64,000 bases of DNA from a virus. Below are positions 1-52,967 of the stretch, in pieces (the stretch's first letter is position 1; each line of letters starts with the position of its first letter). The notes under the pieces are model-generated. The model did no database searches. It had not been told where the DNA came from and was given only the letters and a program-made list of their open reading frames with translations. The stretch is from positions 1 to 64,000 of the IMG/VR virus record IMGVR_UViG_3300032180_000385. One strand, given 5' to 3'. The translations under genes and the position numbers were made by a program.

Positions 1-969
1 ATGGCTAAACTTCCGGCGAAGGCACTCGGAATCTACTGGCCGAGCTGGCAGGCGCCAGCCCTGTCCCGCATCCCGGCCGCGTACAACGTGGTCTACCTGT
101 TCGCGGCTGTTAACAGCGGCAGCAGCGGCGCGATCACGTGGGATCAGTCAGTGGAGAGCGCAACCCAGCTCAAGACCGACATCGCAGCTGTCCGAGCGGC
201 CGGGCGATGCGTGATGATGAGCGTGGGCGGTGGCGGGGTGCCCATCCAGCTCAGCACTACGTCGCAGGCGAACTCGTTCGTATCCAGCTTTGATCAGATT
301 TACACCGCGCTCGGCGGGGTGGACGGGGTGGACTGGGACCTGGAATCACAGGCCACTTTTACCGTGTCCGCCGTGGTCGTCGCGTCGCAGCAGCTCAAAG
401 CGAAATACGGTGCCAGCTTCGCGGTCACGTACTGCCCCGCACCATGGGACAGCACCGCTCGTGCTCTTACCGCTTCGTTGCACAGCGCTGGAGTACTAGA
501 CCTGGTATCTCCGCAGTACTACGACCTGTCCGGGCTCTCCGGCGAAACTGCCAAGATTTCCAACCTGGTATCCAGCATCGAAAACTCGTGGCTTCCGCAA
601 GTCGGCGGCGATGCCAGCAAGATCGGGTTCGGCTACGGTATCGCCAGCGTGGCAGGCGGCGAGACCATGACACAGGCGTCTGCGGTGACGTGTTGGAATA
701 CCCTGGTGGCCAAGTACCCGACGCTGCGCGGGATATTTGCGTGGGAGGCTAACGGAGACCTAGCGCAGAACTGGGCATTCGAGACAACCTTCGCACCGCT
801 CGTCATCGGAACCTCACCGCCACCGCCTCCGCCGCCCCCTCCGCCGCCGGGGACGTACACCGTCAAGACGGGGGACACGTGGTCTGGCATCGCTACCGCG
901 AACGGCCTCACGCTGACCGCTCTTATGCAGGCGAATCCGCCGGTGCCGGGGCAGGTTATCAAACTCTGA
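1..969 (+). CDS. GH18 chitinase-like hydrolase with C-terminal LysM
   Basis: Predicted glycan hydrolase of 322 residues. The N-terminal about 265 residues look like a GH18 barrel: an SVGGGG strand near residue 75 and the catalytic signature DGVDWDLE near residue 112, whose final Glu is the expected acid/base. A run of 11 prolines links it to a C-terminal LysM repeat (TYTVKTGDTWSGIA), which binds N-acetylglucosamine polymers such as peptidoglycan. There is no signal peptide, so it may act as an endolysin-type enzyme released with a holin, or as a virion hydrolase. The small membrane-protein gene follows after 26 nt. The ATG lies at the first base of the window, so an upstream start cannot be excluded. 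Domain calls are confident; substrate and role are inferred. Confidence 0.8.
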   Translation: MAKLPAKALGIYWPSWQAPALSRIPAAYNVVYLFAAVNSGSSGAITWDQSVESATQLKTDIAAVRAAGRCVMMSVGGGGVPIQLSTTSQANSFVSSFDQIYTALGGVDGVDWDLESQATFTVSAVVVASQQLKAKYGASFAVTYCPAPWDSTARALTASLHSAGVLDLVSPQYYDLSGLSGETAKISNLVSSIENSWLPQVGGDASKIGFGYGIASVAGGETMTQASAVTCWNTLVAKYPTLRGIFAWEANGDLAQNWAFETTFAPLVIGTSPPPPPPPPPPPGTYTVKTGDTWSGIATANGLTLTALMQANPPVPGQVIKL

Positions 970-2836: not shown

Positions 2837-3026
2837 GGTGGCCCGGTTCATGGGTGAAACGAGAGCCAAAAGTGCTACGGCCGGGCCGCCTTTGACAACT
2901 CCACAGACTTCCCCGCGGGTCCAAGAATGCGACGACAGCCAGAAGTCATACGGCTCGCGGGGAGACAAACGAGCGGCCCGGTCCATGGTCATGACGGTAG
3001 CCACGTAGCAGACGGCCGGGCCGCTC
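2837..3026 (+). repeat. Hairpin array I (elements A-B-A)
   Basis: Three tandem hairpin elements: A1 2837-2890, B1 2910-2963, A2 2971-3026. Each reads stem, GGTCCA (GGTTCA in A1), N8, ACGANAGCCA, N8, ACGGC, stem. The A stem is GGCCCGG with CCGGGCC and the B stem is CCCCGCGGG with CTCGCGGGG. Variable octamers (first / second): A1 TGGGTGAA / AAAGTGCT; B1 AGAATGCG / GAAGTCAT; A2 TGGTCATG / CGTAGCAG. The A-to-B linker is about 19 nt (core ACAACTnnACAGACTT), the B-to-A linker about 7 nt. The array fills the whole gap between the genes at 2591 and 3050. Seen directly; an RNA role is inferred. Confidence 0.9.
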
Positions 3027-3049
3027 CTGAACAGAAAAGGGAAAAATAA

Positions 3050-3595
3050 ATGACAGTAAAGACTAAGGCTTTCAAGACCGCTGATGAGTATATTGCCCAG
3101 CGGCTCGACGGCGGCGTTCGTGATCCGGGCGTTATCGCGAAAGAGATGCTCGGCGATCCGGATCTGCGGAGGCTGCTCGTCGCGGTGGTGCGCTCGTACG
3201 TGTCCAACAGGATCCGCAGCCGGGTGCGGGCGATCGAGAACTCGGCCGGGCGGGGGGATGAGGTCCAGGCCCATTACGATAGCCAAAGACGCCACGGCCT
3301 CATCTCCCCCTCTGGTCGGCAAGACCCCGGTCGGCCAATCAACGCCGCTTTGCACCAGCGCGACCTTCTGGGTGAGCGCCTCTCCATCCCGAATCACGGG
3401 TACGTGCTGTACGCCGACCTGACCGTGGAGATGCTGGAACTGCGCATCGAATGGCTGGAGTCGATTAACCGCGGTAACGAACGGTCGATTCGTTACTACC
3501 GCTTGCTTATCGCGGAAATTCAGGCGGCCGGCGTGCAGACCCTGGGTGAGGCGGTAGCGGCCGGCGTCGTGCTCCGCGACGAGGGAGCCGCCTAG
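3050..3595 (+). CDS. Hypothetical protein between hairpin arrays
   Basis: A 181-residue, charged, mostly helical protein starting 23 nt after array I, with AAAAGGG upstream of ATG. Residues 1-60 (TADEYIAQRL, GVIAKEMLGD, VVRSYVSNRIRSRVR) resemble short DNA- or RNA-binding helices. The rest includes a helical LTVEMLELRIEWLESI segment. I do not recognise a family. Arrays I and II abut it on both sides (array II begins 5 nt after its stop), so it is a candidate component of the same system, possibly the RNA-binding or regulatory partner. Confidence 0.6.
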   Translation: MTVKTKAFKTADEYIAQRLDGGVRDPGVIAKEMLGDPDLRRLLVAVVRSYVSNRIRSRVRAIENSAGRGDEVQAHYDSQRRHGLISPSGRQDPGRPINAALHQRDLLGERLSIPNHGYVLYADLTVEMLELRIEWLESINRGNERSIRYYRLLIAEIQAAGVQTLGEAVAAGVVLRDEGAA

Positions 3596-3599
3596 AGCC

Positions 3600-4044
3600 G
3601 GAGCGGTCCGGTCCATCGGGTGAACGAAAGCCATGGGTCCAGCGGCCGGGTCGCTCCTTAACAACTGAACAGACTTCCCCGCAGGTCCAAAACGCCGACG
3701 ATAGCCATCGCCGTAACGGCTCGCGGAGAACAAGAACAGCCCGGTCCAAGGTGGCCACGAAAGCCATTGAATCTACGGCCGGGCTGACAACTGAACAGAC
3801 TTCCCCGCGGGTCCATTGGTGAAACGACAGCCACACTTCGAACGGCCTGCGGGGAACAAGAACAGCCGGGTCCAACCCCTTTACGACAGCCAATCACCCT
3901 ACGGCTCGGCTGCACAACTCAATAGACTTCCCCGCGGGTCCATCAGCGTGACGATAGCCAGTGAGCGAACGGCCTGCGGGGAACTAAGACGAGCGACCCG
4001 GTCCACCGTTCCTACGATAGCCATGGCTCAAACGGCCGGGTCGC
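3600..4044 (+). repeat. Hairpin array II (A-B-A-B-A-B-A)
   Basis: Seven elements: A1 3600-3657, B1 3675-3730, A2 3737-3786, B2 3801-3856, A3 3863-3912, B3 3928-3983, A4 3993-4044. Octamer pairs in order: TCGGGTGA/TGGGTCCA, AAACGCCG/TCGCCGTA, AGGTGGCC/TTGAATCT, TTGGTGAA/CACTTCGA, ACCCCTTT/ATCACCCT, TCAGCGTG/GTGAGCGA, CCGTTCCT/TGGCTCAA. All are exactly 8 nt. A stems vary in a paired way: A1 GCGGTCCGG with CCGGGTCGC, A2 CAGCCCGG with CCGGGCTG, A3 CAGCCG with CGGCTG, A4 GCGACCCGG with CCGGGTCGC. The repeat period is 126-137 bp per A-B pair. There is no room for a coding gene in the stretch. Confidence 0.9.
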
Positions 4045-4092
4045 CCCATAACTTAATAACCATCGTTCATGAAACAGGAAAAGGTAATCACG

Positions 4093-4905
4093 ATGAGCAG
4101 GGCATGGGGTAATATCGCTGATCTGCGGATGGCAGCCGAGACGCTGGCCGACGCGAAAAAGGCCAGGATATCCGCTGATAACCGGGTGAAGCGTGGTCGG
4201 ACAGTCGGCTGCCAGCTGGAAGCAGCGGAGATCCTCGACCCGGCGAAATTCCTGGAAGAGCAATACAAGGGCGTGCTCCTTTCTCAATATCAGGCGACGG
4301 TTCCGGAGCACATCAGGAAGTGGGCGGAATGCATTCCCGGCCTGGCCAGCGGCCCGCTGTTCGCCCGCATGCTGGGGGTGATCGGCAACCCGCGGATCGC
4401 CACCCCGTACCGCCGCGAGAAAGAAGACGGCAAGGTCATCCTCGTAGCCGACGGCAAGCCGTATGAGCGCACCGTCCGCCAGCTCTGGCAGTATTGCGGC
4501 TGCGGTGACCCGCGCACCATTCCGACCCGCAGCATACTCGGTGAGAGCCCAACCCAGGAGCAGCTGCTGAGGGGCGGCCAGCGCACCACCATGCTCCCGC
4601 TGCTGTATACGTTCAGCTCGTACCTGGTGCTGCAGCACACCCGGTCGGAGGCCGTCGCTGACAGCAAGTACTACCTCACCTATGTGGGCGCGAAGGCGGA
4701 CTGCGAGCTGCTCGGGAGGGTGCACGAGTTCGAGTGCCGGAACCGGAAGCGCCCGCCGATGGGGCCGAATGGCTGCGGTACGAGCCTGCATCCAGAATGG
4801 GGTGCGCCGGGGTCACCGTGGCGGCCAGGTCACATCAACGCGCACGCTCACCGCCTCGTGTGGAAGGCTTTTCTGAAAGACTTGTGGATTATTTCCGGAG
4901 AGTGA
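4093..4905 (+). CDS. Helix-hairpin-helix protein resembling the C-terminal domain of IS110 transposases
   Basis: A 270-residue protein. ATG 4093 is chosen because AAGGAAAAGG lies just upstream; the ATG at 4069 has none. Residues 78-98 (WAECIPGLASGPLFARMLGVI) form a helix-hairpin-helix like the IPGIG motif of the Transposase_20 domain in IS110/IS116/IS902 transposases. The same order of landmarks follows: RQLWQYCGCGDP, then LLRGGQRTTMLPLLYTFSSYL, then a Tyr-rich ADSKYYLTYVGAKA, and finally AHRLVWKAFLKDLW. The N-terminal DEDD RuvC-like catalytic domain of IS110 is absent, so it should not be a transposase by itself. Arrays II and III flank it on both sides (49 nt and 9 nt). The family call rests on motif order and needs profile comparison; a role in binding the hairpin RNAs is inference. 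Confidence 0.6.
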   Translation: MSRAWGNIADLRMAAETLADAKKARISADNRVKRGRTVGCQLEAAEILDPAKFLEEQYKGVLLSQYQATVPEHIRKWAECIPGLASGPLFARMLGVIGNPRIATPYRREKEDGKVILVADGKPYERTVRQLWQYCGCGDPRTIPTRSILGESPTQEQLLRGGQRTTMLPLLYTFSSYLVLQHTRSEAVADSKYYLTYVGAKADCELLGRVHEFECRNRKRPPMGPNGCGTSLHPEWGAPGSPWRPGHINAHAHRLVWKAFLKDLWIISGE

Positions 4906-4913
4906 CATGAGCT

Positions 4914-5241
4914 GGGCGGCCCGGTCCAGAGCTGCAACGAAAGCCAAGATCGACACGGCCGGGCCGCCCTTTATAACTACATAAGCTTCCCCGCAGGTCC
5001 AAGCGCTCGACGATAGCCAGAAACCCAACGGCTCGCGGGGGACTAGACGGGAGTGGCTCGGTCCATCGTCATGACGATAGCCAGCCCTCGTACGGCTGGG
5101 CCGCTCCTTGACAACTACACAGATTTCCCTGCGGGTCCAAAAGGGACACGAAAGCCATGGGGAACACGGCTCGCGGGGAACAAGACGAGCGGCCCGGTCC
5201 ATTCAGGAGACGATGGCCATGGAAGGCACGGCCGGGCCGCT
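4914..5241 (+). repeat. Hairpin array III (A-B-A-B-A)
   Basis: Five elements: A1 4914-4969, B1 4989-5040, A2 5051-5106, B2 5125-5180, A3 5188-5241. Octamer pairs: GAGCTGCA/AGATCGAC, AGCGCTCG/GAAACCCA, TCGTCATG/GCCCTCGT, AAAGGGAC/TGGGGAAC, TTCAGGAG/TGGAAGGC. A1 has an 11-bp perfect stem. A2 keeps pairing through G-T wobbles (GAGTGGCTCGG with CTGGGCCGCTC), which only helps an RNA helix. As in arrays I and II it begins and ends with an A element. It starts 9 nt after the HhH gene stop and ends just before the converging gene at 5269. Confidence 0.9.
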
Positions 5242-50669: not shown

Positions 50670-50721
50670 GCGGTCCGGTCCACTTAGGGAACGTGAGCCA
50701 TAGATGCAACGGCCGGATCGC
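50670..50721 (+). ncRNA. Lone A-type hairpin element (16th copy), candidate small RNA
   Basis: Stem GCGGTCCGG with CCGGATCGC (9 bp, one G-U), then GGTCCA, CTTAGGGA, ACGTGAGCCA, TAGATGCA, ACGGCC. Octamer lengths are again exactly 8. It matches the A elements of the arrays 46 kb away but has its own stem sequence. It lies in the gap between the major tail and chaperone genes, antisense to both. A candidate promoter ends 7 nt before it and a terminator begins 16 nt after it. Seen: sequence and pairing. Inferred: an independent + strand RNA of roughly 50-115 nt. Confidence 0.75.
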
Positions 50722-50811: not shown

Positions 50812-51560
50812 TTACGTACCGGAGATGCCCGTGGTGGGATAGCGCATTATCGCGCTTGCTGCGCTGAACGTGCTCTTCATGGAGACCGCTGCCGCAACGC
50901 CGCCGGCGACGGCGTAGTCGGGAAGGATCTTGCCGAAGAAGTACTGGCCTGGCCCGGCTCCCTGCACGCCGACCGTGGACGGGTAGAGGTAAAAGTTCCG
51001 GGGCTGGCCGTCGGTCGCCGCGACGTAGGTCTGCGCAGTGGCAGTGTCGTAGAAGCCGGTAAAGTCACCGGATGCGTCCGGCAGGCCGGCCACCCAGATC
51101 AAGTTAGAGTCTCCCATGGTGGTGACGTCTACCTTGGCGACGGTGAAGTTGAGGCTCCAGTCTGACAGAAACGCCATCGGGCTTGCTGAGTCGGTCGGGT
51201 TTACGCCAATGTAAGCGATCGTTCTGTTACCTCTCGTCCTTTTTACAGGGCGAGCGGGCTGGTCATTTCTGCCAGCCTCTGCATGTCTCCATGCAGTCCG
51301 GACTATACCTTCACCCACAAGGGGTGCCACGTACCTAGTCTCTGAACCATCCCGTCGAGACCTTTCAGTTCAGGCGGGCTCGGCTGCTGATTACCCCTGC
51401 TAATCTCTTTTTGAACCATCGCGCTCGCGTTTTCACGCCACGCTGTGGTGCGATCAGGTGACTCGGGCGTCCCAGCAATTCTCGCAGTTTGCACTGAGTG
51501 ATTGCTCTCTCAGGCGGCCAGTCGACCGTTGCGTCCATGAATTCTCGAGATGGTACTCAT
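50812..51560 (-). CDS. Major tail protein, split by a group I intron
   Basis: Exon 1 (51560-51520) encodes MSTISRIHGRNGR, the typical start of lambda-type major tail proteins of actinophages. Exon 2 (about 51229-50812) continues TIAYIGVN ... PMAFLSDWSLNFTVAKVDVTTMGDSNLIWVAGLPDASGDFTGFYD. Joining after CGACT and before TAACAG gives 459 nt, 152 residues, in frame and the usual family size. AAGGAG directly abuts the ATG. It is the first structural gene of the tail operon. The exact splice points are predicted from frame and the usual U/G rules and may be off by a few bases. Confidence 0.7.
51230..51519 (-). ncRNA. Group I intron in the major tail gene
   Basis: About 290 nt with no open frame. 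On the - strand it carries group I landmarks in order: GAGAATTGCTGGGA (P/P4 region), GGTAATCAGCAGCC (Q/P6-P4 region), GGTTCAGAGACTA (R/P7) and GGTGAAGGTATAGTCC (S/P7'). GACTA and TAGTC pair as P7. The flanking exons rejoin into a normal major tail protein, which is independent support. A homing endonuclease gene lies just upstream on the opposite strand, not inside the intron. Confidence 0.8.
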
Positions 51561-51851: not shown

Positions 51852-52967
51852 ATGAAAGAGAAAATCTGCATCGATTGTGGCAGAACTTACACACACGGCG
51901 GACGGGGGCTGTGCCCGAACGACTACGCAAAAAGGAAGCGCTACGGAACACTTCCGCCCCTGAAAACAAGAGGCCCCGACGCTCAGTGCAAAGCTCCCGA
52001 AGGATGCACGAACATGGTAGGGCGCTCCGGCGCCAGAGGGCTGTGCCCTAAGCACTACCAGCGACTTGTCAAGTCAGCTGGAGGGCTGGAGCAACCGGTG
52101 CGAACGGCTCCACTAGCGGCGAGGTTTCGCGCGAAAATAAGTACCGAGCCATGCCCGTGCGGTTGCGATTGCGAACTGTGGACGGGAGGGATTCAGCCTA
52201 AAACCGGGTACGGTAATTTCTCGATCAAGAACAAGACTTATCTAGCACATCGCGTCGCGTGGGAGCTGGAGAAAGGCGAGATACCGGACGATTTCGATAT
52301 CGATCACGTCCAGGAGCGCGGCTGCCGTCATAGGCATTGTGTTAAGATTACGCACCTGGAACCTGTTCCGACGGTGCTGAACAATCGGCGTATACCAATG
52401 ACGGAGCAGCGAAGAGACGGACTTTCGGAAGCAGGAAAGAGGGGATCTGCCATCCGCTGGGCAAGAGTCCGGGCCGGTGAGGCTGAAGTCGATCAGGCAA
52501 TCTGCTCCCGGGTTCTCGCTTTCGTTCTTGCCCATCCCGATGGTAGTCGTGCGCGGCAGATAGCAGAGGCGCTGGATATGTCTATCCACAACGCAAGGCA
52601 AGGTCTTACCCGTCTCGCTAAACGCAAGATGATTCTCGGTAATGGTTCCGGGCTTTACCAGCCGCTACCTGCTGAAGAATGCTGGCGTCCTGTGCGAGGC
52701 TATGCCGCGTTTTATGAAATCTCTGACCGGGGGAACGTCTCTGCCCTGGCCCGGCCGCGAACGCACGGCGGACTGCTGATTCCCCAGCTCAACTCCGCAG
52801 GCTTCCGGGTTGTTCGGCTGTCTAAGTACGGTCAAGTGACAACATGGACTGTAGGACGACTCGTGCTCGAAACGTTCTGCTGGCCACCTCCGCATCCGAA
52901 GGCGAGAGCGAAGCATGGCCTAAACGGTAAGCTAGATGACGCACTGTCAAATCTTCACTGGAGTTAA
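51852..52967 (+). CDS. HNH homing endonuclease with Cys knuckles and NUMOD4
   Basis: A 371-residue protein behind AGAGGTG. The N-terminus has repeated Cys knuckles (ICIDCGRTYTHGGRGLCPNDYAKR, then a similar C ... RGLCPKHYQRL). The HNH core is YLAHRVAWELEKGEIPDDFDIDHVQERGCRHRHCVKITHLEPVPTVLN. A winged-helix-like segment follows (VLAFVLAHPDGSRARQIAEALDMSIHNARQGLTRLAKR), then NUMOD4 (ECWRPVRGYAAFYEISDRGNVSALA). Its position beside the intron-containing tail gene suggests it drives homing at that locus. The 200 bp upstream (51653-51851) holds no other gene I can support. Confidence 0.8.
   Translation: MKEKICIDCGRTYTHGGRGLCPNDYAKRKRYGTLPPLKTRGPDAQCKAPEGCTNMVGRSGARGLCPKHYQRLVKSAGGLEQPVRTAPLAARFRAKISTEPCPCGCDCELWTGGIQPKTGYGNFSIKNKTYLAHRVAWELEKGEIPDDFDIDHVQERGCRHRHCVKITHLEPVPTVLNNRRIPMTEQRRDGLSEAGKRGSAIRWARVRAGEAEVDQAICSRVLAFVLAHPDGSRARQIAEALDMSIHNARQGLTRLAKRKMILGNGSGLYQPLPAEECWRPVRGYAAFYEISDRGNVSALARPRTHGGLLIPQLNSAGFRVVRLSKYGQVTTWTVGRLVLETFCWPPPHPKARAKHGLNGKLDDALSNLHWS

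What the first reader, a model, noticed from the sequence alone, without database searches (positions are those of the whole stretch)
2837..5241. Three arrays of 15 hairpins with two invariant-length 8-nt variable segments
Every element has the form stem, GGTCCA, N8, ACGANAGCCA, N8, ACGGC, stem. In all 15 (and the lone 16th) both variable segments are exactly 8 nt although their bases differ almost completely. Conserved flanks, fixed length and free sequence are what a set of short guide or recognition segments in one RNA scaffold would look like. The arrays occupy all intergenic space around two genes. I know of no described phage RNA family with this layout.
Basis: partly seen in the sequence, partly recalled or inferred. 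Interest (0 to 1): 0.95.

Follow-up and report, generated by a model that had tools for sequence, protein, structure and literature searches.

The report
Phage TIGR-Tas guide-RNA hairpin array
These hairpins are a phage's store of paired 9-letter guide sequences for a known kind of RNA-guided DNA-binding protein (TIGR-TasA, described in 2025); in related laboratory mycobacteriophages only the guide letters change while the hairpin around them stays fixed, so the unknown targets and purpose of these guides can now be tested.

Summary
The motif occurs 17 times on the + strand against 0 expected: 15 units in three arrays, one inside an ORF, one missed at 50677. It is a stem-loop TIGR array with a nuclease-less TasA (ORF 4093-4905), the kind described by Faure et al. 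2025 (PMC12045711). Each unit reads stem, box C (CCA), spacer A, box D (CG), loop, CCA, spacer B, CG, stem. TasA hits solved TasR (3e-22) and TasH (3e-13) by sequence; Foldseek's best matches are TasH and TasR; NCBIfam TIGR_Tas matches all 23 aligned relatives. All 43 IMG/VR TasA loci carry units: 293 on the TasA strand, 9 on the other, 2 in shuffles.

Beyond the paper's text: (1) in A1 mycobacteriophages TasA third codon positions are 93% identical but spacers 29-48%, inside conserved stems; Omegaviruses show the same at one unit. (2) An uncharacterised companion gene (phrog_4604) precedes TasA in 54 of 55 loci. (3) Spacers match no own-genome site above chance, and 15 A+RC(B) 18-mers are absent from 50,697 phages.

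Targets, function and the spacer-change mechanism remain unknown.

The parts
2838..3023 (+). TIGR array 1: 3 stem-loop units (cores 2845-2881, 2918-2954, 2980-3016)
3050..3595 (+). companion gene (181 aa), PHROG 4604 family, function unknown, precedes TasA in 54 of 55 loci examined
3255..3305 (+). TIGR unit inside the companion ORF (core 3262-3298), read through in frame
3603..4043 (+). TIGR array 2: 7 units (cores start at 3610, 3684, 3743, 3810, 3869, 3937, 4000)
4093..4905 (+). TasA (270 aa from ATG 4093; alternative start 4069): Nop/IS110-type RNA-binding domain with coiled coil, no RuvC or HNH domain
4916..5239 (+). TIGR array 3: 5 units (cores start at 4923, 4996, 5060, 5134, 5196)
50670..50720 (+). 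lone distant TIGR unit (core 50677-50713; spacers CTTAGGGAA / TAGATGCAA) in an intergenic gap between minus-strand genes

Best explanation
This is a stem-loop TIGR-TasA locus of an actinobacteriophage-like virus. Inferred mechanism: the arrays are transcribed with the genes and cut between units into hairpins. Each hairpin binds a TasA dimer through its two box C (CCA) / box D (CG) pairs, one at the stem and one closing the tetraloop. Spacer A then pairs with one DNA strand and spacer B with the other, so the target reads 5'-A-(0-2 nt)-RC(B)-3'. TasA has no nuclease domain, so it would bind and bend the target rather than cut it. My best guess for the role is interference with, or control of, foreign or host DNA, because the spacers do not match the phage's own genome and, in related phages, change far faster than anything around them. 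Shown here: unit anatomy, stems, TasA identity, universal linkage, strand bias, spacer hypervariability in relatives, no self-targets. Shown by others for relatives: processing, RNP formation, two-strand targeting by TasR and TasH. Inferred: everything else. The confidence given is for the identification as a TIGR-TasA locus; for interference with rival mobile elements as its role I would say about 0.45.
For: 17 units, 0 expected; stems 9.7/10 paired with compensatory changes. TasA profile hits PDB 9mty TasR at 3.1e-22, from residue 120 on (after its N-terminal nuclease region), and TasH 21kl at 3.2e-13. AF2 model pLDDT 89; Foldseek ranks 1-9 are TasH and TasR, then ISCro4 and IS621. NCBIfam TIGR_Tas_endo matches all 23 members. 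Units lie by TasA in all 43 IMG/VR loci (293 on the TasA strand, 9 opposite, 2 shuffled), in Euphoria, Rich, LonelyBoi, Morrissey, prophiFSAT01-1 and in three bacterial loci. Layout and box motifs agree with the published stem-loop TIGR arrays (PMC12045711). A1 phages: spacer columns 39.5% identical, other array columns 87.8%, TasA third codon positions 93%. Omegaviruses: three different spacer pairs in one conserved unit.
Against: No RNA or target evidence for this virus. The window TasA scores 53 bits against NCBIfam's curated cut-off of 100. Box D here is CG, not UG (TG occurs in some relatives). No natural target found: own genomes show no excess, 0.86 Mb of phage DNA none, 15 exact 18-mers absent from 50,697 phages, one host genome none. 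One relative (Microcystis phage Mvi-JY20) has a TasA-like gene but no unit of this pattern.
Confidence: 0.9

Rival explanations
1. The hairpins are bridge RNAs of an IS110-type mobile element and the protein is a transposase, as PHROG 4285 and several mycobacteriophage records name it.
For: PHROG 4285 'transposase'; Transposase_20 and transpos_IS110 weak hits in some relatives; ISCro4 and IS621 among the structural matches.
Against: No N-terminal DEDD/RuvC domain; TasH and TasR rank above IS110 in every comparison. Many units per locus rather than one two-loop RNA. An Omegavirus without TasA is not a clean empty site: it keeps one unit.
Confidence: 0.04
2. TasA with its guides regulates the phage's own genome (RNA-guided repressor, replication or recombination aid).
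For: TasA lacks a nuclease; Faure et al. suggest regulation or aids to integrases among possible roles.
Against: 73 units searched in their own genomes in four arrangements gave no excess of close matches over re-paired decoys. Spacers change while the phage genome does not.
Confidence: 0.1
3. TasA and its guides act on host chromosomal sites (host take-over or integration-site choice) rather than on rival mobile elements.
For: No target found in phages; the host is the other DNA always present.
Against: All eight Actinomadura prophage pairs lack an exact 18-bp site in the host chromosome (one genome only). Very fast spacer change fits a fast-changing target better.
Confidence: 0.25
4. The units are DNA-level sites (recombination or replication sites), not RNA.
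For: Inverted repeats in tandem.
Against: Strict orientation with the TasA strand (293 to 9); internal box motifs shared with tigRNAs; asymmetric loop; TasA is an RNP protein by homology.
Confidence: 0.02

Closest known systems
Stem-loop TIGR arrays with TasA (Faure et al. 2025, PMC12045711, Fig. 7)
   Same: Nuclease-less Nop-domain TasA; hairpin units in separated subarrays beside the gene; two 8-12 nt spacers, each between box C and box D; variable palindromic stems; short intervening loop.
   Different: Box D mostly CG; ninth spacer base fixed as A in this clade; units also inside coding sequence; companion gene (phrog_4604) not mentioned in the paper's main text; one relative (G002) packs units every 38-42 nt with stems shared between neighbours, which looks intermediate to dual-repeat arrays.
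Dual-repeat TIGR arrays with TasR or TasH
   Same: Two short spacers per unit, CCA box, related protein fold.
   Different: Edge and loop repeats instead of stems; effectors carry nuclease domains.
IS110/IS1111 transposases with bridge RNA
   Same: Shared RNA-binding domain; guides on two sides of an internal loop.
   Different: Here no DEDD domain, no two-loop RNA, many independent units.
Box C/D snoRNPs
   Same: Nop-type protein, paired C and D boxes, two guides per RNA (by the paper's comparison).
   Different: Target is RNA; K-turns, L7Ae and fibrillarin; none seen here.
CRISPR arrays
   Same: Arrays of variable guides in conserved repeats.
   Different: Spacers change in place inside unit-specific stems; no adaptation genes seen; two split spacers.

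Membership tests
TIGR-Tas, stem-loop type | Tas protein with Nop/IS110-like RNA-binding domain | tested here: met
   PDB profile search, Foldseek, NCBIfam TIGR_Tas_endo (window protein below curated cut-off, all 23 members match)
TIGR-Tas, stem-loop type | array of units adjacent to the tas gene | tested here: met
TIGR-Tas, stem-loop type | two 8-12 nt spacers, each after box C (CCA) and before a D-box dinucleotide, pattern repeated twice per unit | tested here: met
   box D is CG (sometimes TG) rather than UG
TIGR-Tas, stem-loop type | palindromic stem flanking each unit, different between units | tested here: met
TIGR-Tas, stem-loop type | array transcribed and processed into single hairpin guides bound by the Tas protein | not testable with these tools
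   shown for a relative in PMC12045711 only
TIGR-Tas, stem-loop type | spacers direct binding to both strands of a DNA target | tested here: inconclusive
   target searches negative
TasR or TasH subtype | N-terminal RuvC or HNH nuclease | tested here: not met
   protein begins at the coiled coil; Pfam finds no nuclease domain
IS110 transposon | N-terminal DEDD/RuvC domain and catalytic C-terminal domain | tested here: not met
CRISPR-Cas | identical repeats and cas genes | tested here: not met
   stems differ between units; neighbours are TasA and the companion
Known Rfam family | match to a curated covariance model | tested here: not met
   only a group I intron at 51279-51534 in the window

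The most novel reading that the evidence does not exclude
Phage TIGR-TasA systems carry, or exploit, a mechanism that rewrites the two spacers of a unit in place while leaving stem, boxes and flanks untouched, together with a dedicated partner protein (phrog_4604), giving a rapidly adapting RNA-guided but cleavage-free interference system between mobile elements. The evidence (near-random spacers inside a conserved scaffold in two mycobacteriophage genera, half-unit exchange, no self-targets) does not exclude this; ordinary homologous recombination between conserved stems plus strong selection could also explain it.
Probability: 0.3. Interest if true: 0.9.

Novelty: new member of a known kind. 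Interest (0 to 1): 0.6.

Why it matters
Faure et al. left open what TasA does, what its spacers target and how TIGR arrays change. Here the system is placed in sequenced, culturable mycobacteriophages of M. smegmatis (about 74 A1 phages, Rich) and Gordonia phages, in which the gene is annotated 'transposase', 'DNA binding protein' or 'hypothetical protein'. Near-identical phages with different spacers and one natural deletion (Cueylyss) are a ready-made comparison. In-place spacer hypervariability and a linked companion gene are concrete, testable properties.

Tried and rejected
1) IS110 bridge RNA: rejected on domain content and rank of structural matches. 2) Self-targets: 73 units, four arrangements, gaps 0-2, no excess over re-paired spacers. 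3) Cross-phage targets: 319 spacer pairs against 0.86 Mb of held phage DNA gave 1 match with one mismatch and 63 with two; decoys 2.5 and 57.5. 4) Exact 18-mers of 15 pairs against 50,697 phages (gap 0 only): none; a control 18-mer was found, so the search was sensitive enough. The 18-bp hit in 19 mycobacteriophages spans the join of two targets in my query and is an artefact; several hits likewise. 5) Host target for the Actinomadura prophage: best hit E 2.2, out of register. 6) Convergent targets between lineages: identical or overlapping pairs only within the same array slot of near relatives or within one array. 7) Companion protein: no Pfam or PDB relative, AF2 pTM 0.47, Foldseek nothing. 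8) I asked whether the spacer base preferences (position 1 A/T about 70%, positions 3 and 6 G/C-rich) come from coding constraint; they persist, more weakly at 3 and 6, in units outside any long ORF.

Full report
OBSERVATION. The pattern GGTCCA-N8-ACGANAGCCA-N8-ACGGC occurs 17 times in the window, all on the + strand, none in 100 shuffles. Fifteen form three arrays in the gaps around ORFs 3050-3595 and 4093-4905, one lies in frame inside the first ORF, and one lies 45 kb away (50677) between two minus-strand genes. Units selected by the pattern alone, without asking for a stem, pair 9.7 of 10 stem positions against 6.9 for arms swapped between units, with GC, CG, AT and TA exchanges. The window's record (128,987 bp) is letter-for-letter part of IMG/VR contig 3300032180_000001.

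RELATIVES. A diverged virus (IMGVR_UViG_3300036828_000767, L003/G002) has at least 26 such units, including one lone unit 36 kb away. Neighbouring units are mostly 38-42 nt apart or multiples of that and share stem sequence. Some run in frame through the 5' parts of the homologues of both genes; in ORF L003:1138-2235 the period is 42 nt, i.e. 14 codons. The 270-codon ORF 4093-4902 matches PHROG 4285 'transposase', and tblastn finds relatives in mycobacteriophages. Reading the DNA beside those genes in Euphoria and Rich shows the same unit with a different scaffold sequence. Across clades the unit is stem-CCA-N9-CG-N4-CCA-N9-CG-stem; in the window's clade the ninth base is A in 94% of spacers.

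IDENTITY. This is the stem-loop array described with TIGR-Tas by Faure et al. (PMC12045711): two 8-12 nt spacers, each flanked by box C (CCA) and box D (UG), palindromic stems in place of edge repeats, solo Nop-domain TasA, subarrays, processed hairpins in a pull-down. A profile of 23 TasA sequences hits PDB 9mty (TasR) at 3.1e-22, starting at residue 120 of TasR, and TasH at 3.2e-13. The AF2 model (pLDDT 89) has TasH and TasR chains as Foldseek ranks 1-9, then ISCro4 and IS621. NCBIfam TIGR_Tas_endo matches all 23, the window protein at 4e-14 but below the curated cut-off. No nuclease domain is present, so it is TasA-like.

LINKAGE. A detector (boxes, spacer length, stem) finds units in all 43 IMG/VR loci fetched by TasA: 293 on the TasA strand, 9 on the opposite strand, 2 in shuffled sequence. 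They also occur in Euphoria, Rich, LonelyBoi, Morrissey, prophiFSAT01-1 and Peregrin and in Nocardioides, Frankiales and Actinomadura loci. The set is redundant: it includes the window's own virus, G002 and about a dozen near-identical A1 phages. Of 395 actinobacterial genomes drawn, 3 have TasA, one of them the seed, so it is mainly a phage gene.

COMPANION GENE. The 181-aa ORF 3050-3595 has relatives directly upstream of TasA in 54 of 55 loci (the profile was built from eight of them, and the set is redundant as above); 19 of 24 members match PHROG 4604, of unknown function. No Pfam or PDB relative was found. The text of Faure et al. names only a ParB-like partner; I could not read its supplement.

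SPACERS ARE HYPERVARIABLE IN A FIXED SCAFFOLD. In nine A1 mycobacteriophages the flanking gp71 CDS is 97.1% and the TasA CDS 97.5% identical on average, but the array between them only 76.0%. By column, spacers are 39.5% identical and the rest of the array 87.8% (37.7% against 91.1% for units 1-4). In three slots defined by their stems, distinct alleles share 29-48% of spacer bases while TasA third codon positions are 93% identical. Some units keep spacer A while B is wholly different (slot 4, TATCTCCGG with three B spacers), so halves can change separately; others are shared between phages that differ in neighbouring units. Omegaviruses repeat this: L094 (an IMG/VR contig of 110,865 bp, the length I recall for phage Omega) and Courthouse share flanks, stem and terminator around one unit, but both spacers differ. 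Eight Omegavirus sequences show three spacer pairs there, six of them the same. In Courthouse, TasA and the other units are missing and that one unit remains. Cueylyss, an A1 phage, has lost all but the end of TasA and has no unit.

TARGETS. By the published rule the target reads A-(0-2)-RC(B); I derived the orientation from the stated 8-nt 3' overhangs and the C-5 rule. No excess of matches was found in the phages' own genomes, in 0.86 Mb of phage DNA, for 15 exact 18-mers in 50,697 phages, or in one host genome. These searches are exact or small, so targets with mismatches or in unsequenced hosts remain possible.

MECHANISM AND NOVELTY. Most likely the hairpins are processed from a transcript and guide a TasA dimer to duplex DNA whose two strands pair with A and B; without a nuclease the effect would be binding and bending. 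That the targets are foreign or host DNA is inferred from the lack of self-targets and the rapid spacer change. The finding is a new member of a known kind. The in-place spacer change, the linked companion gene and the presence in culturable mycobacteriophages are what I add. Searches of the held library for TIGR, Tas and mycobacteriophage terms returned only the 2025 paper and a review on this topic; preprints and most subscription papers were not searchable.

Noticed in passing
window 51279-51534 (-): Group I intron (Rfam RF00028, 52.5 bits) near an ORF 51852-52967 (+) that looks by eye like an HNH-type homing endonuclease.
   Followed up: no
window 50670-50720 (+): A complete TIGR unit 45 kb from the locus, antisense to the surrounding minus-strand genes; the G002 virus also has a lone distant unit at 98611. 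Solitary units may act in trans.
   Followed up: partly
L003:1138-1410 and L003:629-895: TIGR units translated as an N-terminal 14-residue repeat of TasA and inside the companion protein; 126 of 293 units in IMG/VR loci lie in the open frame leading into TasA, almost never in frame 0.
   Followed up: partly
spacers of all clades: Spacer position 1 is A or T in about 70%, positions 3 and 6 are G/C-rich, in both spacers and both clades; cause unknown.
   Followed up: partly
L113:2680-2740 (Courthouse) and L114-L119: TasA-less Omegaviruses keep one TIGR unit with a terminator; six of the seven compared have the same spacers despite SNPs in the flanks, as if turnover stops without TasA.
   Followed up: partly
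A1 mycobacteriophage gp70-type genes: TasA is annotated variously as transposase, DNA binding protein, HTH protein or hypothetical protein in GenBank.
   Followed up: no
L039 (Microcystis phage Mvi-JY20): TasA-like gene with no unit of this pattern and no companion gene found; possibly another array type.
   Followed up: no
window 1-969: ORF of 322 aa resembling a glycoside hydrolase with a proline linker and a LysM-like end; judged by eye only.
   Followed up: no
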